From positions 310,001 to 374,000 of the forward strand of contig CAJVGD010000010.1 of the NCBI GenBank assembly GCA_910890315.1: a stretch of DNA of 64,000 nucleotides, in the 5' to 3' direction. This stretch comes from Serendipita indica DSM 11827 (taxonomy: Eukaryota; Basidiomycota; Agaricomycetes; Sebacinales; Serendipitaceae). Each line of letters opens with the position of its first letter. Positions within the stretch are counted from its first letter, which is position 1. Shown one piece after another: positions 14,771 to 51,375 of this stretch. The notes under the pieces were generated by a model. That model had not been told where the DNA came from. It was given only the letters and a program-made list of their open reading frames with translations, and did not search any database. A program made the translations under genes and the position numbers.

Positions 14771-17700
14771 TTATGATAAAAAGAAAAGGAATCGGGATGC
14801 ACGCCTACGAGGCTCACGAGATTGCTTGGAAATGATACGCTCGAGAAACATCTTGGATTTCAAAGTATTGGGATGATCTTCGCCCAATACCTCAACGCAT
14901 AGATTCACGACCTCTTGCAGGAGGTTTCTGGCCTCCTGAAGCCAATCAGACTTGCCAAACATTTCGGAAGGACTGGAGGAGGTAGCCAGATGACCTCTTG
15001 CAAAGATCTTTAGCGTCACCGGAGGTTTTCGTTTTTGGGCATTGTGCAGCTGAGCACACTTGAACAGTGTGAAACCGAGATTGTACATTGCCCAAATGGT
15101 GTCCAAGTGGCGGGGTCCAAGTATGTCGAGCCGCAAGTCGAGTACCTCACGCTCCATCTTCTCAGCCTCGTCCAACCGACCACGGTCAGACAGTGTGTTT
15201 GCGAGGTTGCCCATTGCCATAATGGTGTCTGGGTGGCGTGGTCCAAGTATCTCGAGCCGCAACTCGAGTACCTCACGCTCCATCTTCTCGGCCTCGTCCA
15301 ACCGACCACGGTCAGACAGTGTGTTTGCGAGGTTGCCCATTGCCATAATGGTGTCTGGGTGGCGTGGTCCAAGTATCTCGAGCCGCAAGTCGAGTACCTC
15401 ACGCTTCATCTTCTCGGCCTCGTCCAACCGACCACGGTCAGACAGTGTAGAAGCGAGGTTGCCCATTGCCGAAATGGTGTCTGGGTGGCGTGGTCCAAGT
15501 ATCTCGAGCCGCAAGTCGAGTACCTCACGCTTCATCTTCTCGGCCTCGTCCAACCGACCACGGTCAGACAGTGTAGAAGCGAGGTTGTTCATTGCCTTGA
15601 TGGTGTCTGGGTGGCGTGGTCCAAGTATCTCGAGCCGCAAGTCGAGTACCTCACGCATCATCTTCTCGGCCTCGTCCAACCGACCACGGTCAGACAGTGT
15701 GTTTGCGAGGTTGCCCATTGCCTTGATGGTGTCTGGGTGGCGTGGTCCAAGTATCTCGAGCTGCAAGTCGAGTACCTCACGCATCATCTTCTCAGCCTCG
15801 TCCAACCGACCACGGTCAGACAGTGTAGAAGCGAGGTTGTTCATTGCCATAATGGTGTCTGGGTGGCGTGGTCCAAGTATCTCGAGCCGCAAGTCGAGTA
15901 CCTCACGCTTCATCTTCTCGGCCTCGTCCAACCGACCACGGTCAGACAGTGTAGAAGCGAGGTTGTTCATTGCCTTAATGGTGTCTGGGTGGCGTGGTCC
16001 AAGGATCTCGAGCAGCAAGTCGAGTACCTCACGCTCCATCTTCTCAGCCTCGTCCAACCGACCACGGTCAGACAGTGTAGAAGCGAGGTTGCCCATTGCC
16101 TTAATGGTGTCTGGGTGGCGTGGTCCAAGGATCTCGAGCTGCAAGTCGAGTACCTCACGCTGCATCTTCTCGGCCTTGTCTAACTGACCATCCTTCCGCA
16201 GCAAACCGGCAAGTTTCCACATCAGAAATAGTGAGTCTTCGTCCCGTTTGCCTTCCGCCGAATCACATCGTGGAAGTGCGGCTTCCAACAGCTTTTGGCA
16301 TGCCTTCCAGTTCCCCAAAGAGTAATAAAGTTCGTGGAACGCCAATCCGCGTGCCACGCTCTCTGACTGCACCGACCGAGGGATGCTGTCGACGTGAGGG
16401 AGCAGCTGCCAGAACCACTCATTGCTATCCTCAACAGGCCGGATGGCACCCAGTAACAGTTGTGCTGTCGTGTGCATATAGCGTCGATTCTCTTCTTCAC
16501 CCAGACGATCCTTGATGTACATCTGAAGTAGAGGGTGAACTGTGTAGAATGACCCGTCGGTCGAAACGTCGATAAATGACGCTTGCGACGCCGAGTCCAC
16601 AATCTCCTGGAATGTAATCTCATCCCACTTGGAGCCCAAGAACCGCAGGTTCGAGATGAAAGTCTTGTCACTCTCTGGAGGGGGGAGACTGTCCCTGACT
16701 GTGTATGTGGTAAAGCCAGAGCTTATTGATTGCTTAAACAGGTCCTTTGGAATCAATGAGTGGTGAAGAAATGCGCAAAGCTTCAGGAAGTCTTGTGTAT
16801 TTGCCGGTAGCTCGTTAAAGGATAGGTCGAATGCGGTATATGTGGAGAAAGCGTACTCCGTGCCAATGTCGGGCTGTTTGCGTAGGAGTCGATCTCGATA
16901 CTGATGAAATGTTTCGAGGTACGTATGGAGGCTGCGCGTCTTGCGAATATACGCTCCGGCTTGCGTAATGGCAAGCGCCAGCATCCCTAGCTCGCGAACA
17001 ATCTCCAGAGATTCGACGTCCGAGGTAGGGGTGATGTTGGCGATTGTATGCAGAAGATTCACCGCCTCGCTCTCCTCGAGACCACCGACATGAACCGCAT
17101 CGTCGGGAGCGTATTTGACGCACCCGCTGTTCCTTGTGGTAATCAGAGTTGCCCCGTGAATAGAACGGGGGAGATATGGAAAAAGGTCGAGTTCTGGCGA
17201 GTCGGCGTTGTCGATGTATAGTAACCAGCCTTTCTCCTTTCCGTCGAGATACGCGAATGCATCCTTCCACGTCATCTTGCTATACCCCTGGCCTAAGGAG
17301 CGAATTGACAGTTCCAAATCCGCCTCCAACTGTGATTGGCTGGAGGCATCGACCATGATCACTCGAGTAAACCTGACCAGGGATTAGAGACTGTCCAGAT
17401 AGCCACCATATGACGTACTTGGCTTCGTGCTCCTGAATCCAGTTCGTTGCGAGCTGAGTCTTGCCCGCCCCTCCAAGTCCATATAGTATACACCGTGGTT
17501 GATGCTTTCCGCGACTCTCTGGAAGCAGCTTCTTCGTAATGAGGGACTCAATTTCTTTTCTTTCGATGTAACTTCTTGACAGAGGTGGACGCGGTTTCGG
17601 CATCATGGCCTCTTCGGATTCTCCCTTTGCTGTATCTGCATTTCCATCAGCGAAGTAGAGATGATATGTTGGATACTGACTGCGAAGTTCGTTCTCTTTG

Positions 17701-18791
17701 ACCCATTGCTTGCTCACTGTCGCCGGCGCACTGTCGACGTAGGCTTTAAGATAGAAATGGACCGTCTTATAGTCATCACTCTCCCTGGATGAGAATCGGA
17801 CCAGATTGCGATGATTCGCGTGAAGAACGATTGTCCTCGCGTTGCGGTCACCGGGAACAATGGCCGAATGATGTGGGACGTTCTGCCGTTCTATCAATAT
17901 TTGATCCTTGGATATGAGTATACTCACTATTTCACCTTGATTCTTGATGCCAGATGTTGCATACTCTTCGCAGAAGAATATGCTGCTGAACTTCTCGCTT
18001 GCCGCGACATACAGACGCTGTGTATTCTCAAGCTCGCTCGAGTGTTCTCGAAGGTCTTTCAGGATCACGTCTGTCGTCTCCATGTACACGGATGCCCAGC
18101 GATTGATTACTTCCCGGAAACTACTGCCTTCGAGACCGGAGTGTGGGGTTCCAAAGAATAAAATCCCATGTGTTGATACTAGAGTGTTCCGAAGTTCACC
18201 ACTGGATTCCAGGTTCTGATTATGACAGATGACCAGGGCCTATGCACGCGTCAGTGGCTGGTATCCATCGACAGTACTTTTACAAACCGATTTGAGAATG
18301 ATACCTCCGATGTCGTGCGCAATGAAGACGATGGGGCGCTGGTCGTTGATCAGGCAGGGTCCAACCGTTAGAGACCGACTCACACGAGGAGCGTCGTTCC
18401 GTATCCGTGAGAGTGCATTAGCGAGCCCTTGAGCATGTCGAGCAATAGTCTGAGTTGATACGCATTCCTGACTGCGGGTATCGGCATCGTATCCATAGCT
18501 GAGGATTCGGGCATTGGGCAAGTCGGAAGGCAAGAAGTCACGTAGCCAACACACTCCCTTGTCCGTCGTCCACGTCTTCTCTCTATGTCCTTGCAGGCCA
18601 TGAATAGCGACAATACTGCAGTAGGCAGAGGTATGCTCAGCGGCGAGCACGTGTAGAAAGTGAACGGTTTACTCGACTGTAGGATCATTTCCAGGTGTAA
18701 CCTCGAGGAATCCAAGATGATCTAGCTTTGAATGCTGATTCGAAGGTGACGGCTTGCGGCTTTCTGAAGCCAAAAGTCTAGATTGGTCCAT
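14771..18791 (-). CDS. NLR1: esterase-like / NB-ARC / TPR STAND receptor, looks whole
   Basis: Fungal NOD-like receptor of about 1,240 aa in seven exons. The ATG at 18791 opens MDQSRLLASESRK. Residues about 38-300 form a PGAP1/DUF676-like alpha/beta-hydrolase: VDIVAIHGLQGHREKTWT (oxyanion-loop motif), RPIVFIAHDIGGI at the nucleophile elbow (Asp in place of Ser), ILFFGTPHSGLEG, and ANHRNLVRF with the likely catalytic His. The NB-ARC part has the P-loop GLGGAGKTQLATNW (about residue 358, near 17,465), Walker B LLYIDNAD, the sensor ATLITTRN and the GMLALAITQAGAYI helix. From about residue 770 there are nine near-identical 42-aa TPRs, then a short degenerate tail ending RFLFFLS. Such STAND proteins are thought to bind a ligand through the repeats, oligomerise through NB-ARC and trigger the N-terminal domain. 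All exon joins I followed keep frame. Confidence 0.92.
15040..16195 (-). repeat. TPR coding array of NLR1, 9 x 126 bp
   Basis: Nine ILGPRHPDTI-type motifs at 126-bp spacing encode 42-aa TPRs of the form DTIxAMxNLAxTLSDRGRLDE followed by AEKMxREVLDLxLEILGPRHP. The x codons vary between repeats (K/M/S/W, G/N/Y, S/N/F, M/K/E/Q, R/Q/L), while the rest of the unit is nearly constant even at silent sites. Confidence 0.95.
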
Positions 18792-19283
18792 GACGACCTG
18801 CGAGGGTGAATGGGTGGGATGCAGAGTATTCTCCAATCGTGAACGAGTATTGGGCACTATTCAGGGAGGAGATGGTCGAGGACAAGCAGCAGTCATGTCT
18901 TTGCAACGAGGCGCTAGAGGCTGGCACGAATTGCCATTCTCCTTGCCAGCTTACAGAATGGTAAGACCCAGCTTGGTTGGTCCTTCCACTTCGACCAAGT
19001 GAAACCCAGGAGTATCAGCGACCCGACGAATGCGACTGCCCTGATATACTCTGAGAGATGTCCCTCTTAGGTGTCTCGCCGGTAACCCTACGCGAGTGTT
19101 TGGGTGCTCCAAATCGAATCTCCTAGTGTTCATTCTTTGAGTGACTCGTTTGCTCGGATACAAAATATGGACAGCGGCCACTTCGTCATGGCAGTTCAAC
19201 AAATGTGGCCATAGTCCATTACCCACAGCAGGAACCAACTAGGCGACGCCATTTAGCGGCCATGATCGAGTCCAATTGGAGAC
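18792..19283. promoter_or_regulatory. NLR1 upstream region and unit 1/2 junction
   Basis: About 490 nt between the NLR1 start and the truncated PIG-S of unit 2. It is near-identical to 26,622-27,118 upstream of NLR2, so the NLR promoter was duplicated with the gene. I see no definite TATA box or binding site. Confidence 0.6.
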
Positions 19284-20345
19284 TCAATGCAGAGAGATTG
19301 ATCCAGGGTAAGGACCAAGCATGGTCCTCTCGATATAACAGCTGACTTCGACTTAGAGAATATGCATCCGATCTTGGAGGCTCTTTCTCAAGTTTACAAC
19401 TTCACTATTGAGAGCCAGGTCCAATACCATGCACCACTGGCTTTTTTTGAGCCACCTCGACGTCAACAGGGCGAACATGATTACTATGCTCTGGGCGAAG
19501 ACGAACTGAAGATATTTATCAACTCGGCTGAATGGACGCTCTGTATGCGCGTTCCTTCACCTCTGACGGATCACTCACCTCGTTGCCAGCATCAAAGATA
19601 ACCAACGACCCCGTGATTCACCTAATCGCATTCATCCCATCTACAAGCCACTCGCCAATGCATATATACGACGAGAAGAATCATCACCCATTGGACGCAC
19701 CGGGCTTCATCATCCCTCAGTGGGGCGGGGTCGTGCTGATGAACAATCAAGTCCTTCCAGGATCTCATGCACTCGCAGAAACCCAAGTTTTCTCCATATT
19801 CCGCACTCAGCTCCTCACCTTACTGGGTGTCCTCACCCTTCCATCGAATGTGAAGTTCGCAGAAACTCATAGTGTTTCTTTGTCCGAATGGCAAGTGGAC
19901 GCACTCCTGAGGATGAGGACGCGAGAGAATGCAGAGGGCAGCATCCAAGCACTCACAAGCATTGTCAAGCTCGTTGATCAGCTTGAAAATATGCCGGTTG
20001 GTCGATCCCCTGCGGGACGACGTACTTCCGTGATTTGAGGAACTCGAGTCTGTACGTACCTCCTCATAAATTTGTGTATGGATCCAATTTCTGACGAAAA
20101 TTGTCGTAGATACGGAGTAGTAACGGCGGGAGTGTCTCCGATCGTTTTGCGAACTCATGTCGAGCCCCGGAATGTTCTTTCGGGGATTATTCAACCCGGG
20201 AATGGTCTGGCAACTCTACTTCCCCGCAGAGCACAAGTATGCAATCTATATGCTCTTTGCCCCCGCGTCGATGCCGCTTATTGTAACAGGTTTGAAGATG
20301 GCAAAGGGTTGGATCAAAAAGAGAACGGAGAAGAAGATAGAATGA
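19284..20345 (+). pseudogene. PIG-S relic 2 (5' half deleted)
   Basis: Matches PIG-S from the exon boundary near 12,060 to its stop. The 5' half, including membrane span 1, is missing: the text passes straight from the unit's upstream sequence (GACTCAATGC) to AGAGAGATTGATCCAGG, whereas unit 3 still holds the intervening 5' half. The body retains GFIIPQWGGVVLMNNQVLPG, and the 3' exon still encodes a second membrane span (YMLFAPASMPLIVTG). A frame change near 20,005-20,035, around LENMPVG, breaks it. It is a gene remnant with no start of its own. Copy 2 is close to copy 1 in sequence, so it is recent. Confidence 0.9.
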
Positions 20346-21994: not shown

Positions 21995-24900
21995 TTATGA
22001 TAAAAAGGAAAGGAATCGGGATGCACGCCTACGAGGCTCACGAGATTGCTTGGAAATGATACGCTCGAGAAACATCTTGGATTTCAAAGTATTGGGATGA
22101 TCTTCGCCCAATACCTCAACGCGTAGATTCACGACCTCTTGCAGGAGGTTTCTGGCTTCCTGAAGCCAATCAGACTTGCCAAACATTTCGGAAGGACTGG
22201 AGGAGGTAGCCAGATGACCTCTTGCAAAGATCTTTAGCGTCACCGGAGGTTTTCGTTTTTGGGCATTGTGCAGCTGAGCACACTCGAACAGTGTGAAACC
22301 GAGATTGTACATTGCCGAAATGGTGTCCGAGTGGCGGGGTCCAAGTATGTCGAGCCGCAAGTCGAGTACCTCACGCTCCATCTTCTCAGCCTCGTCCAAC
22401 CGACCACGGTCAGACAGTGTGTTTGCGAGGTTGCCCATTGCCTTGATGGTGTCTGGGTGGCGTGGTCCAAGGATCTCGAGCTGCAAGTCGAGTACCTCAC
22501 GCATCATTTTCTCGGCCTCGTCCAACCGACCACGGTCAGACAGTGTGTTTGCGAGGTTGTTCATTGCCGAAATGGTGTCTGGGTGGCGTGGTCCAAGTAT
22601 CTCGAGCCGCAAGTCGAGTACCTCACGCATCATCTTCTCGGCCTCGTCCAACCGACCACGGTCAGACAGTGCAGAAGCGAGGTTGCCCATTGCCGAAATG
22701 GTGTGTGGGTGGCGTGGTCCAAGTATCTCGAGCCGCAAGTCGAGTACCTCACGCATCATCTTCTCGGCCTCGTCCAACCGACCACGGTCAGACAGTGTGT
22801 TTGCGAGATTGTACATTGCCGAAATGGTGTCTGGGTGGCGTGGTCCAAGTATCTCGAGCCGCAAGTCGAGTACCTCACCCTTCATCTTCTCGGCCTCGTC
22901 CAACCGACCACGGTCAGACAGTGTAGAAGCGAGGTTGTTCATTGCCGAAATGGTGTCTGGGTGGCGTGGTCCAAGTATCTCGAGCCGCAAGTCGAGTACC
23001 TCACGCATCATCTTCTCAGCCTCGTCCAACCGACCACGGTCAGACAGTGTGTTTGCGAGGTTGCCCATTGCCAAAATGGTGTCTGGGTGGCGTGGTCCAA
23101 GTATCTCGAGCCGCAAGTCGAGTACCTCACGCATCATTTTCTCGGCCTCGTCCAACCGACCACGGTCAGACAGTGTAGAAGCGAGGTTGTTCATTGCCGA
23201 AATGGTGTCTGGGTGGCGTGGTCCAAGTATCTCGAGCCGCAAGTCGAGTACCTCACGCATCATCTTCTCAGCCTCGTCCAACCGACCACGGTCAGACAGT
23301 GTGTTTGCGAGGTTGCCCATTGCCAAAATGGTGTCTGGGTGGCGTGGTCCAAGTATCTCGAGCTGCAGATCGAGTACCTCACGCATCATCTTCTCGGCCT
23401 CGTCCAACCGACCACGGTCAGACAGTGTGTTTGCGAGGTTGCCCATTGCCATAATGGTGTCTGGGTGGCGTGGTCCAAGGATCTCGAGCCGCAAGTCGAG
23501 TACCTCACGCATCATCTTCTCAGCCTCGTCCAACCGACCACGGTCAGACAGTGTGTTTGCGAGGTTGCCCATTGCCAAAATGGTATCTGGGTGGCGTGGT
23601 CCAAGTATCTCGAGCTGCAGATCGAGTACCTCACGCTTCATCTTCTCGGTCTCGTCCAACCGACCACGGTCAGACAGTGTGTTTGCGAGGTTGTTCATTG
23701 CCTTGATGGTGTCTGGGTGGCGTGGTCCAAGTATCTCGAGCCGCAACTCGAGTACCTCACGCTTCATCTTCTCGGCCTCGTCCAACCGACCACGGTCAGA
23801 CAGTGTAGAAGCGAGGTTGCCCATTGCCGAAATGGTGTCTGGGTGGCGTGGTCCAAGGATCTCGAGCCGCAAGTCGAGTACCTCACGCATCATCTTCTCA
23901 GCCTCGTCCAACCGACCACGGTCAGACAGTGTAGAAGCGAGGTTGCCCATTGCCGAAATGGTGTCTGGGTGGCGTGGTCCAAGTATCTCGAGCTGCAGAT
24001 CGAGTACCTCACGCTGCATCTTTTCGGCCTTGTCTAACTGACCATCCTTGCGCAGCAAATCGGCAAGTTTCCACATCAGAAATAGTGAGTCTTTGTCCCG
24101 TTTGCCTTCCGCCCAATCACATCGTGGAAATGTGGCTTCCAACAGCTCTCGGCAAGCGTTCCAGTTCCCCAAAGAGTAATAAAGTTCGTGGAACGCCAGT
24201 CCGCGTGCCACGCACTCTGACTGCACCAACCGAGGGATGCTGTCGACGTGAGGAAGCAGCTGCCAGAACCACTCATTGCTATCCTCAACAGGCCGGATGG
24301 CACCCAGTAACAGTTGTGCTGTCGTGTGCATATAGCGTCGATTCTCTTCTTCACCAAGACGATCCTTGAGGTACATCTGAAGTAGAGGGTGAACCGTGTA
24401 GAATGACCCGTCGGTCGAAACGTCGATAAACGACGCTTGCGACGCCGAGTCCACAATCTTCTGGAATGTAATCTCATCCCACTTGGGGCCTAAGAACTGC
24501 AGGTTCGAGATGAAAGTCTTGTCACTCTCTGGTGGGGGGAGACTGTCCCTGACAATGTATGTGGTAAAGCCAGAGCTGATTGACCGCCTAAACAGGTCCT
24601 TTGGAATCAATGAGGGATGGAGGAATGCGCAAAGTCTCAGGAAGTCTTGCGTATTTGCCGGCAGCTCGTTAAAGGATAGGTCGAATGCGGTGTATGTGGA
24701 GAAAGCGTACTCCGTGCCAATGTCGGGCTGCTCGCGTAGGAGTCGATCTCGATACTGACGAAATGTTTCGAGGTACGTATGGAGGTTGCGCGTCTTGCGA
24801 ATAAACGCTCCGGCTTGCGTAATGGCAAGCGCCAGCATCCCTAGCTCGCGAACAATCTCCAGAGATTCGACGTCCGAGGTAGGGGTGATGTTGGCGATTG

Positions 24901-26621
24901 TATGCAGAAGATTCACCGCCTCGCTCTCCTCGAGACCACTGACATGAACCGCAACGTGTGGAGCGTATTTGACGCGTGCGTTTGTTGTAATGAGTCGGGA
25001 TTTGAGATAGAACAGGGAGTATGGAAGGAGGGAGTTTGGCGGTCGGTTGGCGTCGAGGCGTAGTAACCAGCACATTCCATCAGATACGCCAGGTCCATCC
25101 TTCCATCATATGGCATGGGCTGGGGAGGCATTGACCGTGTTCAAATCCATTCCAACTTTGATTGGCTGGAGGTGGTCGACCATGATCACTGAGTAGGCAT
25201 GACCATGATTGAGAGGATTTGAGACTATCCAGTAGTGTAACGTATATGGTACTGTGTCCGTTCCTGAATCCAGTTCCTTTCCAGCTGAGTCTTGCCCGCC
25301 CTCCAAGTCCATATAGTATACACCGTGGTTGATGCTTTCCACGTCTCTCTGGAAGCAGCTTCTTCGTAATGAGGGATTCAATTTCTTTTCTTTCGATGTA
25401 ACTTCTTGACAGAGGTGGACGCGGTTTCGGTATCATGGCCTCTTCGGATTCTCCCTTTGCTGTATCTGCATTTCCATCAGCGAATTAGAGATGATATGTT
25501 GGATACTGACTGCGAAGTTCGTTCTCTTTGACCCATTGCTTGCTCACTGTCGCGGGCGCACTGTCGACGTAGGCTTTAAGATAGAAATGGACCGTCTTAT
25601 AGTCATCACTCTCCCTGGATGAGAATCGGACCAGATTGCGATGATTCGCGTGAAGAACGATTGTCCTCGCGTTGCGATCACCGGGAACAATGGCCGAATG
25701 ATGTGGGACATTCTGCCGTTCTATCAATATCTGATCCTTGGATATGAGTATACTCACTATTTCACCTTGATTCTTGATGCCAGATGTTGCATACTCTTCG
25801 CAGAAGAATATGCTGCTGAACTTCTCGCTTGCCGCGACATACAGACGCTGTGTATTCTCAAGCTCGCTCGAATGTTCTCGAAGGTCTTTCAGGATCACGT
25901 CTGCCGTCTCCATGTACACGGATGCCCAGCGATTGATTACTTCCCGGAAACCACTGCCTTCGAGACCGGAGTGTGGGGTTCCAAAGAATAAAATCCCATG
26001 TGTTGATACTAGAGTGTTCCGAAGTTCACCACTGGATTCCAAGTTCTGATTATGACAGATGACCAGGGCCTATGCACGCGTCAGTGGCTGGTATCCATCG
26101 ACAGTACTTTTACAAACCGATTTGAGAATGATACCTCCGATGTCGTGCGCAATGAAGACGATGGGGCGCTGGTCGTTGATCAGGCAGGGTCCAACCGTTA
26201 GAGACCGACTCACACGAGGAGCATCGTTCCGTATCCGTGAGAGTGCATTGGCGAGCCCTTGAGCATGTCGAGCAATAGTCTGAGTTGATACGCATTCCTG
26301 ACTGCGGGTGTCGGCATCGTATCCACAGCTGAGGATTCGGGCATTGGGCAAGTCGAAAGGCAAGAAGTCACGTAGCCAACACACTCCCTTGTCCGTCGTC
26401 CACGTCTTCTCTCTATGTCCTTGCAGGCCATGAATAGCGACAATACTGCAGTAGGCAGAGGTATGCTCAGCGGCGAGCACGTGTAGAAAGTGAGCAGCTT
26501 ACTCGACTGTAGGATCATTTCCAGGTGTAACCTCGAGGAATCCAAGATGATCTAGCTTTGAATGTTGATTTGAAGGTGACGGCTTGCGGCTTTCTGAAGC
26601 CAAAAGTCTAGATTGGTCCAT
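21995..26621 (-). pseudogene. NLR2: 14-TPR paralogue with a scrambled ATPase core
   Basis: Closest sister of NLR1. Same start (MDQSRLLASESRK, 26621), same esterase-like exons with AHDIGG, same introns, and the same C-terminus through KQSREPRRRASRF. It has 14 TPRs, five more than NLR1. Between about 24,950 and 25,340 it departs sharply from NLR1: many small deletions and substitutions hit the P-loop exon end (GLGG is followed by RARL, not AGKT) and the stretch up to the Walker B region, leaving the two halves in different frames. Sequence on both sides returns to near identity. As read, no working NB-ARC can be made. The patch may be real decay or a poorly resolved stretch of the assembly. Confidence 0.85.
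22265..24045 (-). repeat. TPR coding array of NLR2, 14 x 126 bp
   Basis: Fourteen 42-aa units of the same form as in NLR1, with the variable codons drawn from the same small sets (S/K/L/M after DTI; G/N/Y after AM; N/S after NLA). Some neighbouring pairs of units recur almost exactly (for example around 22,940-23,180 and 23,190-23,430), pointing to duplication of two-unit blocks. Confidence 0.95.
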
Positions 26622-28914: not shown

Positions 28915-31900
28915 CTACGAGGCCCGAGATTGCTCGGAAATAATATGCTTGAGAAACACCTTGGATTTCAAAGTAGTAGGATGATCTTCGCCCAAGACCT
29001 CAACGCATAGATTCACGACCTCTTGCAGGAGGTTTCTGGCTTCCCAAAGCCAACCAGACTCATGAAACATTGAGGAAGGACTGGACGAGGTAGCCAGATG
29101 ACCACGCTTGAACAGTGTAGAAGCGAGGTTGATCATTGCCGAAATAGTGTCTGGGTGGCGTGGACCAAGTATCTCGAGCTGGAAATTGAGTACCTCACGC
29201 TGTATTTTCTCTGCCTCGTCCAACCGACCACGGACTGACAGTATAGAAGCTATGTTGCTCATTGTTGCAATGGTAGCTGGGTGGCGTGGTCCAAGTATCT
29301 CGAGCTGCAGATCGAGTACCTCACGCTGCATCTTCTCAGCCTCGTCCAACCGACCTTGGTGAGACAGTGTGCTTGAAAGGTTGTTCATTGCTGAAATAGT
29401 GCCTGGGTGGCGTCGTCCAAGTATCTCGAGCCGCAAGTCGAGTACCTCACGCTGCATCTTCTCAGCCTTGTCCAGCCGACCACGGTGAGACAGCGTATTT
29501 GCGAGGTTGTGCATTGCCGAAATGGTGCCTGGGTGGCGTGGTCCAAGTATCTCGAGCCGCAGATCGAGTACCTCACGCTGCATCTTCTCAGCCTCGTCCA
29601 GCCGACCACGATCATACAGTGTATTTGCGAGGTTATTCACTGCCATAATGGTGTCTGGGTGGCGTGGTCCAAGTACCTCGAGCCGCAGATCGAGTATCTC
29701 ACGCCGCATCTTCTCAGCCTCGTCCAGATGACCACGGTCGGACAGTGTATTTGCGAGGTTGTTCATCGCCATAATGGTCTCTGGGTGGCGTGTTCCAAGC
29801 ATCTTGAGCCGCAATTCGAGTACCTCACGCTGCATCTTCTCAGCTTCGTCCAGCCGACCACAGTCAGAGAGTGTATTTGCGAGGTTGCCCATTGCCGAAA
29901 TGGTGTCTGGGTGGTGTGGCCCAAGTATCTCGAGCCGCAGGTCGAGTATCTCGCGCCGCATCTTCTCAGCATCGTCCCACTGACCACGGTTAGACAGCGT
30001 ATTTGCGAGGTTGCTCATTGCCATAATGGTGTCTGGGTGACGTCGTCCAAGTATCTCGAGCTGCAAGTCGAGTACCTCACCCCGCATCTTCTCAGCCTCG
30101 TCCAACTGACCACGGTCAGACACTGTATTTGCGAGGTTATGCACTGCCGAAATGGTGTCTGGGTGGCGTGGTCCAAGTATCTCGAGCTGCAGATCGAGTA
30201 CCTCACGCTGCATCTTCTCAGCCTCGTCCAACCGACCACGGTGATACTGTATAGAAGCGAGGTTGTTCATCGCCGAAATGGTGCTTGGGTGGCGTCGTCC
30301 GAGTATCTCGAGCCGCCAGTCGAGTACCTCACGCTGCATATTTTCGGCCCGGCCCAACTGACCATCCTTCCACAGCAAATCGGCAAGCTGGTCCATCACA
30401 AATACTGATTCTTTGTCCCGTTTACCCTCGGCGCAATCAAATCGTGAAAGCACAGGTTCTAATAGCTCTTGGCACGCTTTCCAGCGCCCCAAAGAGTAAT
30501 AAAGCTTGTAGAATGCCAATGCGTGTGCCACGCTCTCTGACTGCACTGATCGAGGGATGCTGTCGACGTGGGGTAGTAGTTGCCAGAACCACTCATTGCT
30601 ATCCTTCACAGGCCGGATGGCACCCAGTAGCAATTGTACTGTCATGCGCATATAGCGTCGGTTCCCCTCTTCAGCCAGACGGTCCTTGATATACATCTGA
30701 AGTAGAGGGTGAACCGTGTAGAATGACCCGTCGGTCGAAACGTCGATAAATGACGCTTGCGACGCCGAGTCCACAATCTCCTGGAATGTAATCTCATCCC
30801 ACTTGCGGCCCAAGAACCGCAGGTTCGAGATGAAAGTCTTGTCACTCTCTGGAGGGGGGAGACTGTCCCTGACTGTGTATGTGGTAAAGCCAGAGCCTAT
30901 TGATTGCTTAAACAGGTCCTTTGGAATCAATGAGTGGTGAAGAAATGCGCAAAGCTTCAGGAAGTCTTGCGTATTTGCCGGTAGCTCGTTAAAGGATAGG
31001 TCGAATGCGGTATATGTGGAGAAAGCGTACTCCGTGCCAATGTCGGGCTGCTTGCGTAGGAGTCGATCTCGGTACTGACGAAATGTTTCGAGGTACGTAT
31101 CTAAGCTGCGCGTCTTGCGAATATACGCACCGGCTTGCGTAATTGCAAGCGCCAGCATCCCTAGCTCGCGAACAATCTCCAGAGATTCGACGTCCGAGGT
31201 AGGGGTGATGTTGGCCGTTGTATGCAGAAGATTCACCGCCTCGCTCTCCTCGAGACCACCGACATGAACCGCACCATCAGGAGCGTAGTTGACGCACCCG
31301 ACGTTCCTTGTGGTAATCAGAGTTGCCCCGTGAATAGAATGGGGGAGATATGGAAGGAGGTCGAGTTCTGGCGAGTCGGCGTTGTCGACATATAGTAACC
31401 AGCCTTTCTCCTTTCCATCAAGATATGCCACCGCATCCTTCCACGTCATCTTGCTATATTCCGGACCCAACGAGCGAATTGACCGTGCTAAATCCGCTTC
31501 CAACTGCGATTGGCTGGAGGCATCGACCATGATCACTCGAGTAAACCTGACCAGGGATTATGAGCTGTCCAAATAGTCACCATATGACGTACTCGTCTTC
31601 GTGTTCCTGAACCCAGTTCGTTGCGAGCTGAGTCTTGCCCGCCCCTCCAAGTCCATATAGTATACACCGTGGTTGATGCTTTCCGCGACTCTCTGGAAGC
31701 AGCTTCTTCGTAATGAGGGACTCGATTCCTTTTCTTTCGATGTAAGTTCTTGACAGGAGTGGACGGGGTTTTGGCGTCATGGACTCTTCGGATTCTCCCT
31801 TTGCTGTATCTGCCTCACCATCAGCGAATTAGAGATGGGATATTGGATACTGACTGCGAAGTTCGTCTTCTTTATTCCATTTCTTTTGCACTGTCAAAGG

Positions 31901-35777: not shown

Positions 35778-38700
35778 CTACGAGGCCCGAGATTGCTTGG
35801 AAATAATATGCTTGAGAAACATCTTGGATTTCAAAGTAGTAGGATGATCTTCGCCCAATACCTCAACGCATAGATTCACGACCTCTTGCAGAAGGTTTCT
35901 GGCTTCACGAAGCCAACCAGACTCATGAAACATTGCGGAAGGACTGGACGAGGTAGCCAGATGACCACGCTTGAACAGTGTAGAAGCGAGGTTGATCATT
36001 GCCGAAATGGTGTCTGGGTGGCGTGGACCAAGTATCTCGAGCTGGAAATTGAGTACCTCACGCTGCGTTTTCTCTGCCTCGTCCAACCGACCACGGACTG
36101 ACAGTATAGAAGCTATGTTGCTCATTGTTGCAATGGTAGCTGGGTGGCGTGGTCCAAGTATCTCAAGCCGCAGGTTGAGTACCTCACGCTGCATCTTCTC
36201 AGCCTCTTCCAACCGACCTTGGTGAGACAGTGTGCTTGCAAGGTTGTTCATTGCCGAAATGGTGCCCGGGTGGCGTCGTCCAAGTATCTCGAGCCGCAGA
36301 TCGAGTACCTCACGCTGCATCTTCTCAGCCTCGTCCAGCCGACCACGGTGAGACAGTGTATTTGCAAGGTTGTGCATTGCCGAAATGGTGCCTGGGTGGC
36401 GTGGTCCAAGTATCTCGAGCCGCAGATCGAGTACCTCACGCTGCATCTTCTCAGCCTCGTCCAGCCGACCACGATCATACAGTGTATTTGCGAGGTTATT
36501 CACTGCCATAATGGTGTCCGGGTGGCGTGGTCCAAGTATCTCGAGCCACAAGTCGAGTACCTCACGCTCCATCTTTTCGGCCTCGTCCAACCGACCACGG
36601 TCAGACAGTGTAGAAGCGAGGTTGCCCATTGCCATAATGGTGTCTGGGTGGCGTGGCCCAAGTATCTCGAGCCGCAAATCGAGCACCTCACACTCCATCT
36701 TTTCGGCCTCGTCCAACCGACCACGCTCAGACAGTGTGTTTGCGAGATTGTGCATTGCTACAATGGTGTCCGGGTGGCGTGGTCCAAGTATCTCGAGCCG
36801 CAAGTCGAGTACCTCACGCTTCATCTTCTCGGCCTCGTCCAACCGACCACGGTCAGACAGTGTAGAAGCGAGGTTGCCCATTGCCATAATGGTGTCCGGG
36901 TGGCGTGGTCCAAGTATCTCGAGCCGCAAGTCGAGTACCTCACGCTCTATCTTTTCGGCCTTGTCCAACCGACCACGGCCAGATAGTGTATTTGCGAGGC
37001 TGTGCATTGCCGAGATGGTGTCCAGGTGGCGTGGTCCAAGTATCTTGAGCCGCAAGTCGAGTACCTCACGCAGCATCTTCTCAGCCTCGTCCAACCGACC
37101 ACGGTCAGACACTATGTTTGCAAGGTTGCCCACTGCCGAAATGGTGTCCGGGTGGCGTGGTCCAAGTATCTCGAGCAGCAAGTCGAGTACCTCACGCTCC
37201 ATCTTTTCGGCCTTGTCGAACTGGCCATCCTTCCACAGCAAATCGGCAAGTTCCCCCATCACAAATAGTGAGCCTTCGTCCCGTTTGCCTTCCGCCAATC
37301 ACATCGTGGAAGTGCGGCTTCCAACAGCTCTCGGCAAGCCTTCCAGTTCCCCAAAGAGTAATAAAGTTCGTGGAACGCCAATCCGCGTGCCACGCTCTCT
37401 GACTGCACCGACCGAGGGATGCTGTCGACGTGAGGGAGCAGCTGCCAGAACCACTCATTGCTATCCTCAACAGGCCGGATGGCACCCAGTAACAGTTGTG
37501 CTGTCGTGTGCATATAGCGTCGATTCTCTTCTTCACCAAGACGATCCTTGATATACATCTGAAGTAGAGGGTGAACCATGTAGAATGAGCCGTCGCTCGA
37601 AACGTCGATAAATGACGCTTGCGACGCCGAGTCCACAATCTCCTGGAATGTAATCTCATTCCAATTGGGGCCTAAGAACCGCAGGTTCGAGATGAAAGTC
37701 TTGTCACTCTCTGGCGGGGGGAGACTGTCCCTGACTGTGTATGTGGTAAAGCCGGAGCTGATTGACCGCTTGAACAGGTCCTTTGGAATCAATGAGTGGT
37801 GAAGAAATGCGCAAAGCTTCAGGAAGTCTTGCGTATTTGCCGGTAGCTCGTTAAAGGATAGGTCGAATGCGGTATATGTGGAGAAAGCGTACTCCGTGCC
37901 AATGTCGGGCTGCTTGCGTAGGAGTCGATCTCGATACTGACGAAATGTTTCGAGGTACGTATGGAGGCTGCGCGTCTTGCGAATAAACGCTCCGGCTTGC
38001 GTAATGGCAAGCGCCAGCATCCCTAGCTCACGAGCAATCTCGAGAGATTCGACGTCCGAGGTAGGGGTGATGTTGGCGGTTGTATGCAGAAGATTCACCG
38101 CCTCGCTCTCCTCGAGACCACCGACATGAACCGCACCGTCAGGAGCGTAGTTGACGCACCCGACGTTCCTTGTGGTAATCAGAGTTGCCCCATGAATAGA
38201 ACGGGGGAGATATGGAAGGAGGTCGAGTTCTGGCGAGTCGGCGTTGTCGACGTATAGCAACCAGCCTTTCTCCTTTCCATCAAGATATGCCACCGCATCC
38301 TTCCACGTCATCTTGCTATATTCCGGACCCAACGAACGAATTGACCGTGCTAAGTCCGCTTCCAACTGCGATTGGCTGGAGGCATCGACCATGATCACTC
38401 GAGTAAACCTGACCAGGGATTAGGGGCTGTCCAAATAGTCACCATATGACGTACTCCTCTTCGTGTCCCTGAATCCAGTTCGTTGCGAGCTGAGTCTTGC
38501 CCGCCCCTCCAAGTCCATATAGTATACATCGTGGTTGATGCTTTCCGCGACTCTCTGGAAGCAGCTTCTTTGTAATGAGGGACTCGATTCGTTTTCTTTC
38601 GATGTAAGTTCTTGACAGGAGTGGACGGGGTTTTGGCGTCATGGACTCTTCGGATTCTCCCTTTGCTGTATCTGCCTCTCCATCAGCGAATTAGAGATGG

Positions 38701-41566: not shown

Positions 41567-44500
41567 TCATGAAAATAGCACAGGCAAGTATCTGGTCAAA
41601 GGTCTCCTACGAGAGCCATGATGAGATTTCTCCGCCATAACGAGCTCGAGAAGCGATTCCAACTCCGAGGTATTGGGAGTTTCTTCACCAGGGACCTCGC
41701 GCCGTAGCTTCATGGCCTCTCGTAGGAGATTTGCGGATTCCTCGAGCTGACCAGACTTCTGAAGTATAAAAAGAGAATGGGATAAGGCACGGAGAGCCTT
41801 GCGTCGTCCAAGGATTCTGGGTAACAATGATTTTACCCCTTGCTCTATCTTTTCGGCCCCGTCCCTCTGACTACGCCTATACAATGTAAGAGCGAGGTCC
41901 CTCATGACCATTATCGTGTCTTTATGCTGTTGTCCAAGTATCTCGAGCCGCAGTGCGAGTACATCTCGCTCCAGCTTTTCAGCCTCGTCCAGCTGACCAC
42001 GGTTATACAGTGTGATGGCAAGATTGCGCATCGCCGAGATAGTATCTAGATTTCTTCTTCCAAGGATCTCGAGCCGCAAAGCAAGCACCTCTCGCTCCAA
42101 GGTTTCGGCCTCATGTAAATCGCCACGGTTGGACAGTGTAATGGCAAGATTCCCCATCGTCGAAATCGTATCGATATTTTTTCTTCCAAGGATCTCGAGC
42201 CGCAAAGCAAGTGCTTCTCGCTCCATCTTTTCGGCCTCGTCCAGCTGACCGCGATCGCGGACTGTGACCGCAAGGTTATGCAACGCCGAGATAGTGTCAA
42301 GATGCCGTCGTCCAAGTATCTCCGTCTGCAACGCGAGTACCTCTCGCTCCATCTTTTCAGCCTCGTCCCACTGACCACACTTCCATAAAGTTGTAGCAAG
42401 GTTGTTTACTGCCACGATAGTATCTGGATGGCGTTTTCCAAGGATTTCGAGCCGCAAAGCAAGCACCTCCCGTATCAGCTTTTCAGCCTCATCCAACTGA
42501 CCACCCTTGTGTAATGTAGCGGCAAGGCTATTCATCGCTGATATGGTATCTGGATGCCGTTTTCCAAGTATCTCGACCCGTTGGGTAAGTACTTCTCGCT
42601 CCATCTTTTCAGCCTCTTCGAGCTGGCCACGCCTGTATAATGTAGCAGCGACATTCCTGGTTGCCGAGATGGTGTCTGGGTGCCGTTGACCAAGGATCTC
42701 GAGCCGCAATGTGAGTACCTTTCGCGCCATCGTTTCGGCTTTGTCCAACTGACCACTCCTTGATAATGTATCTGCAAGGTTGCTCATTGCTGAGATGGTA
42801 TCTAGATGCCATTCTCCGTGGATCTCGAGCCGTAATGCAAGCACATCACGTTGCATCTTTTCCGCTCTGGACAACTGACCGTCACGTTGCAGCGCATCGG
42901 CTAGTCGGCTGATAACAAATAGTGAATCTTCATTCCTCTGGCCTTCGTTTTGACCAAGCTGGGTAAGTGCAGGCTCCAACAGCTCTTGACACGCCTTCCA
43001 GTTCCCCACAGAGTTATAAAGTTCGTGGAACGCCAATGCGTGCGCCACGCTCTCCAATTGTACCGATCGAGGAATTCTGTCGACATGAGGAAGCAGTTGC
43101 CAAGACCACGCATTGCTATCTTTAATGGGCCGGATAGCACCTAGGAGGAGTTGTGCGGTCATGCGTGCATAACATCGACCCTCTTCTCCTCCAAGACGAT
43201 CCTTGAGATACATCTGAAACAGTGGATGAAACGTGTAGAATAGGCCGTCGGATGAAATACTGATAAACGACCCATGCGATGCTGGGTCGACAATCCTCTG
43301 GAATGCAACCTCATTCCACGTGGACCCAGGAATTTTTATGAGCCTCGAAATGATAGTCTGGTCACTCTCGGGAGGGGGAAGGCTATTCCGGACCGAGTAT
43401 GCGCTAAATTCGGATTGTATTGACCGCCTAAATAGGTCTATTGGAATCAGCGAGTAGTGGAGGGATGCACACAGTTTGAGGAGCTCCTGTGTATTTTCTG
43501 GGAGGTTTTTGAAGAACAGATCGAAGGCGGCGTATGTCGAGAACGCGTATTCCGCGTCAATTTCTGGCTTGCTACGTAGAAGTTGATCTCGATGCTCATG
43601 GAATGTGTCCAGATACGTATCGAGGCGCCGAGTGTTGCCAATATATGCTCCGGCTTGGGTAATTGCCAGCGCAAGCATACCCAGCTCCCGAACAATCTTG
43701 AGAGATTCAACATCGGACGCAGGTGCGACGTTGGCAATTGTGTGGAGAAGGTTCACGGCCTCGTTGTCCTCCAGATCGCCGACATGGACTGCACCATCCC
43801 GAGCGTATTTGTTACAGTGAGCGTTTCTTGTGGTAATCAAAATGGTTCCGTGAACACTACCAGGGAGGTATGGACGAAGTTCGAGCTTTTCCGAATCGGC
43901 GTTGTCAAAGAATAGTAGCCAACCTTTCTCCTTGCCGTCGAGATACGCAACTGCGTCATTCCACGTCATCTTAGCGTACTCCGGGCCTAAGGAGCGAATG
44001 GACCGCTCCAAATCCGCCTCTAGATGCTGTTGGCTGGAAGCGTCGACGAAAATCACCCGACTGAAACTAGAGAAAGAAAGTCAGGCACTATTTAGATGAT
44101 GCTCACAATCCGTACTTGTGTTCGTGATCCTGGATCCATTTCGTCGCGAGCTGGGTCTTTCCTGACCCCCCGAGTCCATATAATATGCACCGTGGTTGAC
44201 GTTTCCCCTGACCTGTCTGTAGCAGCTTCTGTGTGATGAGATATTCGATATTCTTTCGTTCAATGTAGGTCCTTGACGGGACTGGACGAGGTTTCGGCAT
44301 CACGCCCGGTTCAGGGGCAGATTTTCCCTTGGCCGCATCTACACGCCGATCAGCTAAATAGAGAATGATGGAGTGGCCACGAACTGCGGCAATCGTCCTC
44401 TCTGACCCATTCCTTGCACACAGCCTCCGGCCCGTGGTCGACGTAGGCTTCGAGATGGTAGCGAACTGTCCTATAGTTGTCGTTCCCTTTGGATGTAAAT

Positions 44501-47689: not shown

Positions 47690-50600
47690 GCCTCTTCCAG
47701 CTGACCACGGCCGCGCAGTGTAGCGGCGAGATTATTCACTGCCGAGATAGTGTCTACGTGGTCCTGTCCAAGCAGCTCCTGTCGCAAGGCAAGCACCTCT
47801 CGCTCTATCCCTTCAGCCTCATCTAACCGACCAAGCCAGTAGAGTGCACTAGCAAGATTGGCCATTGTTGAGATAGTGTCTAGATGGCTTCGTCCGAGAA
47901 TCTTGAGCCGCAAGGCCAGTATTTCCCGCTGCATCGTTTCCACCTCGCCCCACTCACGACGCTTGTGGAGTATAGCGGCAAGATCGCTCATTGCTGAGAT
48001 ATTTTCCGGACTTTGCAGCCCAAGTGTCTCGAGTAGCAATGCAAGCACCTCGCGCTGCATTGTTTCGGCCTTGTCAAACTGCCCGCGATCGCTGAGTGTA
48101 ACTGCAAGGTTACTCATCGCTGAGATAGTATTCAGGTGTCGTTTTCCAAGGATCTCGAGCCGCAACGCGAGTACATCTCGCTCCAGCTTTTCTGCCTCGT
48201 CCAACAGACCGCTATCGCAGAGGGTAGCGGCAAGGTTATGCATCGCCGAGATGGTATCCAGGTGTCGTTTTCCAAGGATCTCGAGCCGCAATGCGAGTAC
48301 ATCTCGCTCCAGCTTCTCTGCCTCGTCCAACTGACCACAGTTATAGAGTGTAACGGCAAGGCTGCTCATCGCCGATATGGTATCCAGATGACGCTGTCCG
48401 TGAGTCTCAAGCTGCAAAGCAAGTACCTCCCGCCTCATCTTTTCGGCTTCCTCCAGTTGGCCACGCTTCTCCAGTGTAATGGCAAGGTTTCCCATTGCCG
48501 ATATGGTATCCAGGTGTCGTTTTCCAAGGATCTCGAGCCGCACCGCGAGTACATCTCGCTCCAGCGTTTCGGTTTCCTCCAGTTGGCCACGCTTCTCCAG
48601 TGTAACGGCAAGGTTTTCCATTGCCGATATGGTATCCAGGTGTCGTTTTCCAAGGATCTCGAGCTGCACCGCGAGTACATCTCGCCCCAGCTTTTCTGCC
48701 TCGTCCAACTGACCACGCTTCCCCAGTGTAACGGCAAGGTTTCCCATTGCCGATATGGTATCCAGATGACGCTGTCCGTGTGTCTCAAGCTGCAAAGCAA
48801 GTACCTCCCGCCTCATCTTTTCGGCTTCCTCCAGTTGGCCACGCTTCCCCCAGTGTAACGGCAAGGTTTTCCATTGCCGATATGGTATCCAGGTGTCGTT
48901 CTCCAAGGATCTCGAGCTGCACCGCGAGTACATCTCGCCCCAGCTTTTCTGCCTCGTCCAACTGACCACGCTTCCCCAGTGTAACGGCAAGGTTTCCCAT
49001 TGCCGATATGGTATCCAGGTGTCGTTTTCCAAGGATCTCGAGCCGCGCCGCGAGTACATCTCGCTCAAGCTTTTCTGCCTCGTCCAACTGACCACGGTTA
49101 TGGAGTGTAACGGCAAGGCTGCTCATCGCCGAGATGGTATCCAGATGACGCTGTCCGTGAGTCTCAAGCTGCAAAGCAAGTACCTCCCGCCTCATCTTTT
49201 CGGCTTCCTCCAGTTGGCCACGCTTCTCCAGTGTAATGGCAAGGTTTCCCATTGCAGATATGGTATCCAGGTGTCGTTTTCCAAGGATCTCGAGCCGCAC
49301 CGCGAGTACATCTCGCTCCAGCTTTTCGGTTTCCTCCAGTTGGCCACGCTTCTCCAGTGTAACGGCAAGGTTTCCCATTGCCGATATGGTATCCAGGTGT
49401 CGTTTTCCAAGGATCTCGAGCCGTAAAGTGAGTACATCTCGCTCCAGCTTTTCTGCCTCGTCCAACTGACCACGGTCATAGAGTGTAACGGCAAGGCTGC
49501 TCATCGCCGATATGGTATCCAGATGACGCTGTCCGTGAGTCTCAAGCTGCAAAGCAAGTACCTCCCGCCTCATCTTTTCGGCTTCCTCCAGTTGGCCACG
49601 CTTCCCAGTGTAACGGCAAGGTTTTCCATTGCCGATATGGTATCCAGGTGTCGTTCTCCAAGGATCTCGAGCTGCACCGCGAGTACATCTCGCCCCAGCT
49701 TTTCTGCCTCGTCCAACTGACCACGCTTCCCCAGTGTAACGGCAAGGTTTCCCATTGCCGATATGGTATCCAGATGACGCTGTCCGTGTGTCTCAAGCTG
49801 CAAAGCAAGTACCTCCCGCCTCATCTTTTCGGCTTCCTCCAGTTGGCCACGCTTCCCCCAGTGTAACGGCAAGGTTTTCCATTGCCGATATGGTATCCAG
49901 GTGTCGTTCTCCAAGGATCTCGAGCTGCACCGCGAGTACATCTCGCCCCAGCTTTTCTGCCTCGTCCAACTGACCACGCTTCCCCAGTGTAACGGCAAGG
50001 TTTCCCATTGCCGATATGGTATCCAGGTGTCGTTTTCCAAGGATCTCGAGCCGCACCGCGAGTACATCTCGCTCCAGCTTTTCTGCCTCGTCCAACTGAC
50101 CACGGTTATAGAGTGTAACGGCAAGGCTGCTCATCGCCGAGATGGTATCCAGATGACGCTGTCCGTGAGTCTCAAGCTGCAAAGCAAGTACCTCCCGCCT
50201 CATCTTTTCGGCTTCCTCCAGTTGGCCACGCTTCTCCAGTGTAATGGCAAGGTTTCCCATTGCCGATATGGTATCCAGGTGTCGTTTTCCAAGGATCTCG
50301 AGCCGCACCGCGAGTACATCTCGCTCCAGCTTTTCGGTTTCCTCCAGTTGGCCACGCTTCTCCAGTGTAACGGCAAGGTTTCCCATTGCCGATATGGTAT
50401 CCAGGTGTCGTTTTCCAAGGATCTCGAGCCGTAAAGTGAGTACATCTCGCTCCAGCTTTTCTGCCTCGTCCAACTGACCACGGTCATAGAGTGTAACGGC
50501 AAGGCTGCTCATCGCCGATATGGTATCCAGATGACGCTGTCCGTGAGTCTCAAGCTGCAAAGCAAGTACCTCCCGCCTCATCTTTTCGGCTTCCTCCAGT

Positions 50601-51375
50601 TGGCCACGCTCCCCCAGTGTAACGGCAAGGTTTCCCATTGCCAATATGGTTTCCAGGTGTCGTTTTCCAAGGATCTCGAGCCGCAACGCGAGTACATCTC
50701 GCTCCAGCTTTTCTGCCTCGTCCAACTGACCACGCTTCTCCAGTGTAACGGCAAGGTTATGCATCGCCGAGATAGTATCTAGATGCCGTCCTCCAAGAAG
50801 CTCGAGCCGAGAAGCAAGTACCTCTCTCCCCATCTTTTCAGCTTTGTCAAACTGGCCGAGATCAGAGAGTGTAATCGCAAGGTTATCTAGCGCTGAGATA
50901 GTATCTGGATGTCGTTTACCAAGTATCTCTAACCGCAAATCCAGTACCTCTCGCTCCAGCTTTTCAGCCTCGTCCAACTGACCACGGCTATACAGTATAA
51001 CGGCTAGGCTGTTGATGGCCGAGATCGTTTCGGGATGCCGCTTCCCAAGGATCTCGAACCGCAAAGCGAGTACCTCTCTGCCCATCTGCTCGGCTTCCTT
51101 GAACTGGCGACGCCTCCACAATGTAGCAGCGAGGCTCTTGGTTGCCGAAACAGTATCTAGGTGCCTTGGCCCGGAGGTCTCAAGTCGAAAAGCGAGGACC
51201 TCTCGTTCCATCTTCTCCGCCTCCTCCAGCCGACCACACCTTGACAATGTTTCTGCGAGATTGCTCATTGCCGAGATGCTGTCTGGATGACGTTGTCCAC
51301 ACATCTCGAGTCGCAAAGTGAGTATCTCTCTCCTCAATTTTTCCGCTTCGTTCCATTGACTATCACGCTGGAGCG
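47690..51375 (-). repeat. TPR coding array of NLR6, about 29 x 126 bp
   Basis: About 3.7 kb of 126-bp units. The distal units at either end are diverged; the middle (about 48.2-50.7 kb) is nearly uniform, with alternating types (ETHGQRHLDTISAMSS, EILGKRHLDTISAMGN, EILGERHLDTISAMEN). Variation sits mainly at the residue after AM and at the two residues after TL (YD/YN, EK, GK, HN, CD, SD). Confidence 0.93.
48588..50603 (-). repeat. Two-copy higher-order repeat of 1,008 bp (8 TPR units) in NLR6
   Basis: Blocks at about 48,588-49,595 and 49,596-50,603 match base for base over long stretches at an offset of exactly 1,008 (8 x 126). For example, the TGTCTCAAGCTG at 48,781 is at 49,789, and the five-C tract at 48,847 is at 49,855. 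The shared tract dates the tract change before the block duplication. Confidence 0.9.

What the first reader, a model, noticed from the sequence alone, without database searches (positions are those of the whole stretch)
15040..16195. TPR repeats vary almost only at the ligand-groove positions (NLR1 and NLR2)
Across the 23 repeats of NLR1 and NLR2 the 42-aa unit is nearly invariant, also at silent sites. Exceptions are five codons: after DTI (K/M/S/L/W), after AM (G/N/Y), after NLA (S/N/F), after EKM (M/K/E/Q) and after LDL (R/L/Q). Numbered on the standard TPR, the first three are positions 2, 5 and 9 of helix A, spaced i, i+3, i+7 on one face, the concave face known to contact ligands. Changes such as AAC/TCT or AAG/ATG/TCG are all amino-acid altering. 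Homogenisation by recombination plus selection for diversity at the binding surface fits, as proposed for the WD40 repeats of HET-type STAND proteins.
Basis: partly seen in the sequence, partly recalled or inferred. Interest (0 to 1): 0.85.

Follow-up and report, generated by a model that had tools for sequence, protein, structure and literature searches.

The report
Fungal NLR repeats varying at ligand groove
Two neighbouring fungal immune-type receptor genes carry rows of almost identical helical repeats that differ mainly at a few amino acids predicted to line the ligand-binding groove, a real pattern that was already published for such receptors in other fungi.

Summary
The pattern is real. 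NLR1 (9 units, 15104-16237) and NLR2 (14 units, 22328-24091) are minus-strand arrays of a 42-aa TPR unit. Without the divergent first unit of each, five codons (unit positions 4, 7, 11, 26, 33) hold 82% of nonsynonymous differences; dN there is 0.39, against dN 0.012 and dS 0.10 elsewhere.

The same positions stand out in 20 runs elsewhere in this genome (45% of nonsynonymous differences, 12% expected). Of the eight most variable positions there (4, 11, 14, 7, 26, 33, 15, 1), six match cargo-contact positions of kinesin light chain 1 by my mapping; 26 and 1 do not. Position 26 points inward (inference).

Best reading: homogenised TPR arrays with diversifying selection on the concave groove of NB-ARC/TPR receptors. 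Dyrka et al. 2014 (PMC4986451) published this for a Podospora TPR NLR and saw matching variable positions in a Penicillium array. So: new member of a known kind. Modest additions: replication within one genome, helix-B positions, a weaker bias in bacterial 42-aa TPR runs.

The parts
14771..18791 (-). NLR1 gene model: exons 18791-18673, 18615-18288, 18239-17419, 17372-14771 (three GT-AG introns set by eye), 1289 aa; possible SesB-like N-terminus / NB-ARC-like / TPR
   Evidence: splice model; Pfam: TPR_12 and TPR_10 strong; NB-ARC E 2.5e-4, 20.8 bits, under the 23.5 cut-off; DUF676 E 0.02, under its cut-off
15104..16237 (-). NLR1 TPR array, 9 in-register 42-aa units; first unit (16112-16237) divergent; a degenerate partial unit follows downstream of 15104
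22328..24091 (-). NLR2 TPR array, 14 in-register units; first unit (23966-24091) divergent; one more degenerate unit at 22202-22327 by a looser search
21995..25075 (-). NLR2 open reading frame (end of the NOD region plus array); upstream exons not modelled
29152..30411 (-). NLR3 array, 10 units, less homogenised (mean pS 0.23 within, first unit dropped); most variable positions 4, 7, 1, 11 (run of 11 units, 9 kept)
36015..37274 (-). NLR4 array, 10 units; most variable positions 4, 7, 11, 26, 15 (run of 11 units, 8 kept); its NOD part (37259-38398) is in another frame
41795..42928 (-). NLR5 array, 9 units, not homogenised (mean pS 0.58 within, first unit dropped); most variable positions 7, 14, 15, 11 (7 units kept)
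47755..51409 (-). NLR6 array with a 378-bp higher-order period and frame changes near 48889, 49645 and 49897; most variable positions 14, 7, 15, 26 in two of its three longer pieces, 7 and 14 in the third, position 4 low in all three

Best explanation
NLR1 and NLR2 are paralogous fungal NB-ARC/TPR-type receptors whose C-terminal sensor is a superhelix of nearly identical 42-aa TPRs. Unequal exchange and gene conversion within and between the two genes keep the scaffold uniform and reshuffle variant codons (shown: equal within- and between-gene silent distances and four-gamete pairs; that exchange is the cause is inferred). Selection keeps amino-acid variants at side chains that line the concave groove: helix A positions 4, 7, 11 (in other arrays also 14 and 15) and the inward helix-B positions 26 and 33. 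The units thus present different combinations to the ligand (15 combinations in 21 units). By analogy with known fungal TPR NLRs, binding of a non-self or altered-self protein would trigger the NOD and an N-terminal effector, leading to cell death (inferred; ligand, effector activity and phenotype are unknown).
For: Concentration at five codons with dN above dS. Replication in 20 runs outside the window: the five positions hold 45% against 12% expected, reached by 2 of 100000 random sets; dN at the five exceeds the run's own outside dS in 18 of 20. The nine-position KLC contact set holds 57% against 21% expected, 0 of 20000 random sets. Groove mapping; helix faces; model with mean pLDDT 94, nearest to KLC1 TPR domains, several peptide-bound, and also close to the Podospora 42-aa array 4y6c. 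Predicted convex helix-B positions 20, 24, 27, 28, 31, 35 have pooled entropies of 0.9 to 1.9 bits, against 2.6 to 3.6 at 4, 7, 11, 14, 15, 26. Homogenisation: NLR1 within 0.097, NLR2 within 0.120, between 0.105, NOD flanks 0.138; 16 of 351 distinct units occur more than once, some in different loci.
Against: One assembly, no isolates: polymorphism and array order are untested. Selection was inferred by counts; no codon model with recombination was run. In NLR1/NLR2 alone, post hoc, the clustering is only moderately unlikely (2512 of 100000). Two of 20 external runs, L019 and L022, show dN at the five below outside dS; L016+0 (15% at the five) and L020 (26%) concentrate elsewhere, for example at position 14. 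The 20 runs come from 16 stretches of one gene family, so they are not fully independent. Pooled entropy of position 33 (1.56) is no higher than that of convex positions 20 (1.82) and 31 (1.93), contact positions 8, 12 and 19 are rather conserved (1.63, 1.25, 1.22), and position 39, in neither set, is variable (2.67). Position 26 has no named ligand contact in the KLC text read. NLR1 and NLR2 units paired from the C-terminal end are somewhat closer (0.066) than average (0.105), so part of the likeness may be shared descent rather than exchange.
Confidence: 0.78

Rival explanations
1. Relaxed constraint: the groove side chains are simply free to change, while recombination wipes out other differences; no positive selection.
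For: Groove positions are surface positions, and TPRs in general vary there. A weaker bias is also present in bacterial TPR runs, most of them little homogenised (25 of 29 under 65% nucleotide identity; test).
Against: dN at the five exceeds outside dS in 18 of 20 external runs, about 12-fold in L007, whereas relaxed constraint predicts at most equality. Predicted convex positions vary less than most groove positions.
Confidence: 0.14
2. A targeted mutagenesis process (for example adenine-directed, as in diversity-generating retroelements, PMC10907252, passages) hits these codons.
For: In the 21 units all codons at positions 4, 7, 26, 33 can be derived from one A-bearing codon and their fixed bases are not A. 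In 16 runs an A allele is present at 111 of 164 polymorphic sites in the seven variable codons (68%), against 96 of 196 elsewhere (49%).
Against: In the same 16 runs 374 of 417 majority-A sites outside the seven variable codons are invariant, and 53 of 164 polymorphic sites inside them have no A allele. In the 21 units Asn8 (AAC) and Lys24 (AAG) change only silently. Silent diversity at the five codons is only about 1.6 times that elsewhere.
Confidence: 0.02
3. Assembly artefact: collapsed or chimeric repeats create the uniformity and the mixtures.
For: PMC12222747 (abstract and outline) states that short-read assemblies of such NLRs are unreliable; several arrays here contain frame changes. 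How this genome was sequenced is not known to me.
Against: Assembly error has no reason to place changes at groove codons and at amino-acid-changing bases, nor to repeat this in runs at other loci.
Confidence: 0.05

Closest known systems
[quoted passage not shown] Penicillium chrysogenum gi255934897 (UNK/AAA/TPR) (Dyrka et al. 2014, PMC4986451; section 17 read whole, other passages)
   Same: Receptor with highly conserved TPRs; in Pa_2_10340 three positively selected and other polymorphic positions, all on the concave side of a KLC2-based model; repeat-number polymorphism between isolates; matching variable positions in the Penicillium array.
   Different: Another fungus with a cluster of at least six arrays in the window; isolate polymorphism not tested here; helix-B positions 26 and 33 pointed out here. 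The published figure with the exact positions was not visible to me, so I cannot say whether it includes them.
HNWD genes het-d and het-e of P. anserina (PMC12222747, abstract and outline)
   Same: Near-identical repeats kept by concerted evolution with hypervariable sites under diversifying selection, in a fungal NLR.
   Different: WD40 propeller, not TPR superhelix; the recognised partner HET-C is known there, none is known here.
PLP-1 of Neurospora crassa (passage in PMC12881547)
   Same: NB-ARC with TPR repeats.
   Different: N-terminal patatin domain and a known partner, SEC-9, whose incompatible variant triggers cell death.
Kinesin light chain TPR domains (6fuz, 6fv0, 6swu) and the Podospora near-identical TPR-like array (4y6c, 4y6w)
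   Same: 42-aa TPR superhelix (repeat length of 4y6c recalled); KLC1 binds peptides in the concave groove at the homologous positions.
   Different: KLC is a motor adaptor; its repeats are not near-identical. For 4y6c only the titles were seen; the paper is not held.

Membership tests
Fungal NB-ARC/TPR NLR (STAND) | NB-ARC type NTPase domain | tested here: inconclusive
   Pfam NB-ARC E 2.5e-4, 20.8 bits, under the 23.5 cut-off; a P-loop (GLGGAGKT) is visible in the model
Fungal NB-ARC/TPR NLR (STAND) | C-terminal TPR array | tested here: met
   TPR_12 E 6.4e-126, TPR_10 E 1.3e-123
Fungal NB-ARC/TPR NLR (STAND) | N-terminal effector of the SesB-like (DUF676/abhydrolase) type | tested here: inconclusive
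   DUF676 E 0.02, 14.8 bits, under the 20.3 cut-off
High-internal-conservation TPR NLRs (Dyrka 2014) | repeats of at least about 85% identity over 100 aa or more | tested here: met
   mean aa identity 0.85 over the 9 NLR1 units, borderline because of the first unit; four six-unit NLR2 stretches 91-93% identical to six units of NLR1
High-internal-conservation TPR NLRs (Dyrka 2014) | excess amino-acid change at concave positions | tested here: met
   by counts, not by HyPhy models
High-internal-conservation TPR NLRs (Dyrka 2014) | repeat-number polymorphism between isolates | not testable with these tools
   a single assembly is held, without relatives
42-aa TPR class (KLC, 4y6c) | 42-aa helical-hairpin superhelix | tested here: met
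   model mean pLDDT 94.3, 12 helices in 6 units; Foldseek TM 0.72/0.85 to 4y6c and 0.81/0.77 to 6fuz
Diversity-generating retroelement target | changes confined to template adenines | tested here: not met
   53 of 164 polymorphic sites in the variable codons lack an A allele; 374 of 417 other majority-A sites invariant; no template or reverse transcriptase was searched for

The most novel reading that the evidence does not exclude
The 42-aa TPR array is a modular recognition surface shared by fungal and bacterial NLR-type receptors, with one small fixed set of groove positions per repeat (4, 7, 11, 14, 15 on helix A; 26, 33 on helix B) that reads an extended peptide repeat by repeat, so that specificity could be predicted from the string of residue combinations. 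The bacterial bias (29 runs; seven positions 24.7% against 16.7% expected, 0 of 20000 random sets), including a partly homogenised TIR/NB-ARC/TPR array (L031), does not exclude it.
Probability: 0.1. Interest if true: 0.8.

Novelty: new member of a known kind. Interest (0 to 1): 0.38.

Why it matters
It shows, with many arrays in one genome, how a fungus could keep diverse receptors without somatic recombination: uniform repeats shuffled by recombination, with variation kept where the ligand is expected to sit. It gives a concrete list of positions to test by binding assays and long-read population sequencing. The principle itself is already published (PMC4986451).

Tried and rejected
Adenine-directed or DGR-like mutagenesis: suggested by the codon lists and by the A excess at variable sites, rejected on balance. 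General mutational hotspot: in 16 runs with outside dS under 0.15 (143 units), bases 1 and 2 of the seven variable codons are about 10 times more diverse than elsewhere (0.24 and 0.29 against 0.026), base 3 only about twice (0.14 against 0.07). A ligand contact at position 26: six residue names tried gave no hit in PMC13078783, and C320 gave none in PMC6214655. A first bacterial search with a profile made from fungal units was too strict (6 runs in 5 loci) and was replaced by a generic motif (29 runs in 24 of 80 loci). Antisense ORFs over the array: the three antisense frames over the NLR1 array hold 3, 1 and 12 stops; taken as chance openness, not tested further. The paper on the Podospora 42-aa repeats (Marold et al. 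2015, recalled) is not held. Passages of PMC12258605 added nothing on repeat positions. Rows dropped before the counts: the first unit of each array; 12 of 46 runs with fewer than 5 units; units under 70% identity to their run's consensus; and 6 of the 34 longer runs, all outside the window, that kept fewer than 5 units.

Full report
What is there. NLR1 and NLR2 are on the minus strand. NLR1 can be modelled as four exons, 1289 aa. Pfam finds very strong TPR_12 and TPR_10 matches, a sub-threshold NB-ARC match and a DUF676 match well under its cut-off. The tandem repeats have a 126-bp period: 9 units in NLR1 and 14 in NLR2, 23 in all. Four more arrays of the same kind lie downstream in the window.

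Codon analysis. Numbering the unit from D of DTI, the 21 units that remain after dropping the divergent first unit of each array vary at amino-acid level mainly at codons 4 (S, K, M, L), 7 (G, N, Y), 11 (N, S), 26 (M, K, E) and 33 (R, Q, L). These hold 82% of nonsynonymous differences; dN there is 0.387, against dN 0.012 and dS 0.103 in the other 37 codons. With all 23 units the share is 60%. A minimum-event count gives 12 N and 1 S in the five against 8 N and 11 S elsewhere (Fisher one-sided p 0.0046); because the five were picked after looking, 20 N events were also placed at random, and 2512 of 100000 trials gave a best five as loaded. Of the same 20 N events 11 fall in the nine KLC contact codons defined below (binomial p 0.001), against 2 of 12 S events. 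Codon 11 forms a single two-allele block with the silent site of codon 10 (11 GCA-AAC, 10 GCT-TCT). There are 15 different five-residue combinations in 21 units.

Out-of-sample test. I fetched 25 stretches that cover every PF13424 match listed outside the window; only 112 of 884 candidates had been scored, so the genome may hold more. Of 46 in-register runs, window included, 34 have 5 units or more; 28 kept at least 5 units at 70% identity to their consensus, 20 of them outside the window, in 16 stretches. In those 20 the five positions hold 45% of nonsynonymous differences (12% expected); 2 of 100000 random sets of five reach this. Ranking by mean share: 4, 11, 14, 7, 26, 33, 15, 1. dN at the five exceeds outside dS in 18 of 20; the two exceptions, L019 and L022, have the highest dS. 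Less favourable results: L022 has 14% at the five, L016+0 15% and L020 26%, the last two with position 14 among their leaders. In the other six window runs the five hold 24 to 48%, and position 4 is not among the leaders in NLR5 and NLR6. The runs are paralogous, so they are not fully independent.

Structure. An AlphaFold2 model of six NLR1 units, with nine other six-unit stretches of the window as its alignment, has mean pLDDT 94 with helix A at about 2-15 and helix B at about 19-37 of the unit. The nearest solved structures are KLC TPR domains, several with bound peptide; the Podospora array 4y6c is rank 26. No coordinates could be read in the script box, so positions were mapped in three indirect ways. 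First, positions 4, 7, 11, 14, 15 are standard TPR 2, 5, 9, 12, 13, five of the seven most variable, concave positions of Magliery and Regan (PMC1261162, passages). Second, residues named as contacting JIP1 or TorsinA peptides in KLC1 (PMC6214655, passages) correspond by spacing to unit positions 4, 7, 8, 11, 12, 14, 15, 19 and 33 (R327 is 33); N469 was not mapped. That set of nine holds 57% of nonsynonymous differences in the 20 external runs against 21% expected, 0 of 20000 random sets. Third, on a helical wheel, helix-A positions 4, 7, 11, 14, 15 face 94 to 174 degrees away from the hydrophobic direction, and helix-B positions 26 and 33 lie 37 and 17 degrees from it, that is inward and not on the convex side. 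Predicted convex positions 20, 24, 27, 28, 31, 35 have pooled entropies of 0.9 to 1.9 bits; groove positions 4, 7, 11, 14, 15, 26 have 2.6 to 3.6, but position 33 only 1.56, and position 39, in neither set, has 2.67.

Homogenisation. Silent distances within NLR1 (0.097), within NLR2 (0.120) and between them (0.105) are alike and below that of their NOD flanks (0.138), while NLR3 and NLR4 units are about 0.19-0.22 from them and NLR5 units about 0.57. Units paired from the C-terminal end are somewhat closer (0.066), so some positional descent remains. Four-gamete pairs inside the unit: 25 of 45 in NLR1 (8 units), 39 of 78 in NLR2 (13 units); recurrent change could add to these. Sixteen of 351 distinct 126-nt units occur exactly more than once, some in different loci. 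NLR3, NLR4 and NLR5 are not homogenised in this way (within 0.23, 0.25, 0.58), and NLR5 still varies most at 7, 14, 15, 11, so homogenisation sharpens the picture but does not create it.

Bacteria. One scan of genome contigs gave 80 loci, the best of 162 relatives. A generic motif finds 29 runs of at least four 42-aa units in 24 of them; 4 of the 29 have nucleotide identity of 65% or more. The five positions hold 17.7% there (11.9% expected; 0 of 20000 random sets) and the KLC set 29.4% (21.4%; 1 of 20000). The effect is weaker than in the fungus and some runs share a genome. L031, a Desulfurivibrionaceae MAG, encodes a TIR/NB-ARC/TPR protein with nine units at 75% nucleotide identity whose most variable positions are 11, 4, 14, 26, 1, 7, 5, 15.

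Literature and verdict. Dyrka et al. 2014 (PMC4986451, section 17 whole and other passages) reported for the sesB-like/NB-ARC/TPR gene Pa_2_10340 that all positively selected and other polymorphic TPR positions map to the concave side, with repeat-number polymorphism between isolates, and that variable positions of a Penicillium array map to the same places. Nine searches of the held library were used. In the listings of those on NLR repeats no title dealt with helix-B positions of NLR TPRs, but I read only some passages, and the genome, being unnamed, could not be searched by name; so I do not claim absence from print. The finding is a sound example of a known phenomenon.

Noticed in passing
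47755-51409 and 35778-38398; also L006, L008, L013, L016, L018, L020: Several arrays change reading frame inside the array, and in NLR4 the NOD part and the array lie in different frames; decay, sequence error or introns are all possible.
   Followed up: partly
11900-13100 and 19260-20000: A stretch on one side of NLR1 recurs as a diverged copy on its other side (seen by eye), suggesting a segmental duplication that accompanied the NLR cluster.
   Followed up: no
18288-18320: The possible N-terminal hydrolase of NLR1 reads AHDIGG where I recall a nucleophile-serine motif (GxSxG) in SesB-like lipases; the effector may be inactive or of another type.
   Followed up: no
L031:2243-5287: Bacterial TIR/NB-ARC/TPR protein with a partly homogenised 42-aa array varying at the same positions.
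   Followed up: partly
L032:2771-6805: Insolitispirillum peregrinum protein with 14 in-register 42-aa TPRs and a C-terminal CHAT domain; most variable positions 14, 4, 11, 33.
   Followed up: partly
48095-51099: The NLR6 array has a three-unit (378-bp) higher-order period, suggesting that blocks of three units were amplified together.
   Followed up: no
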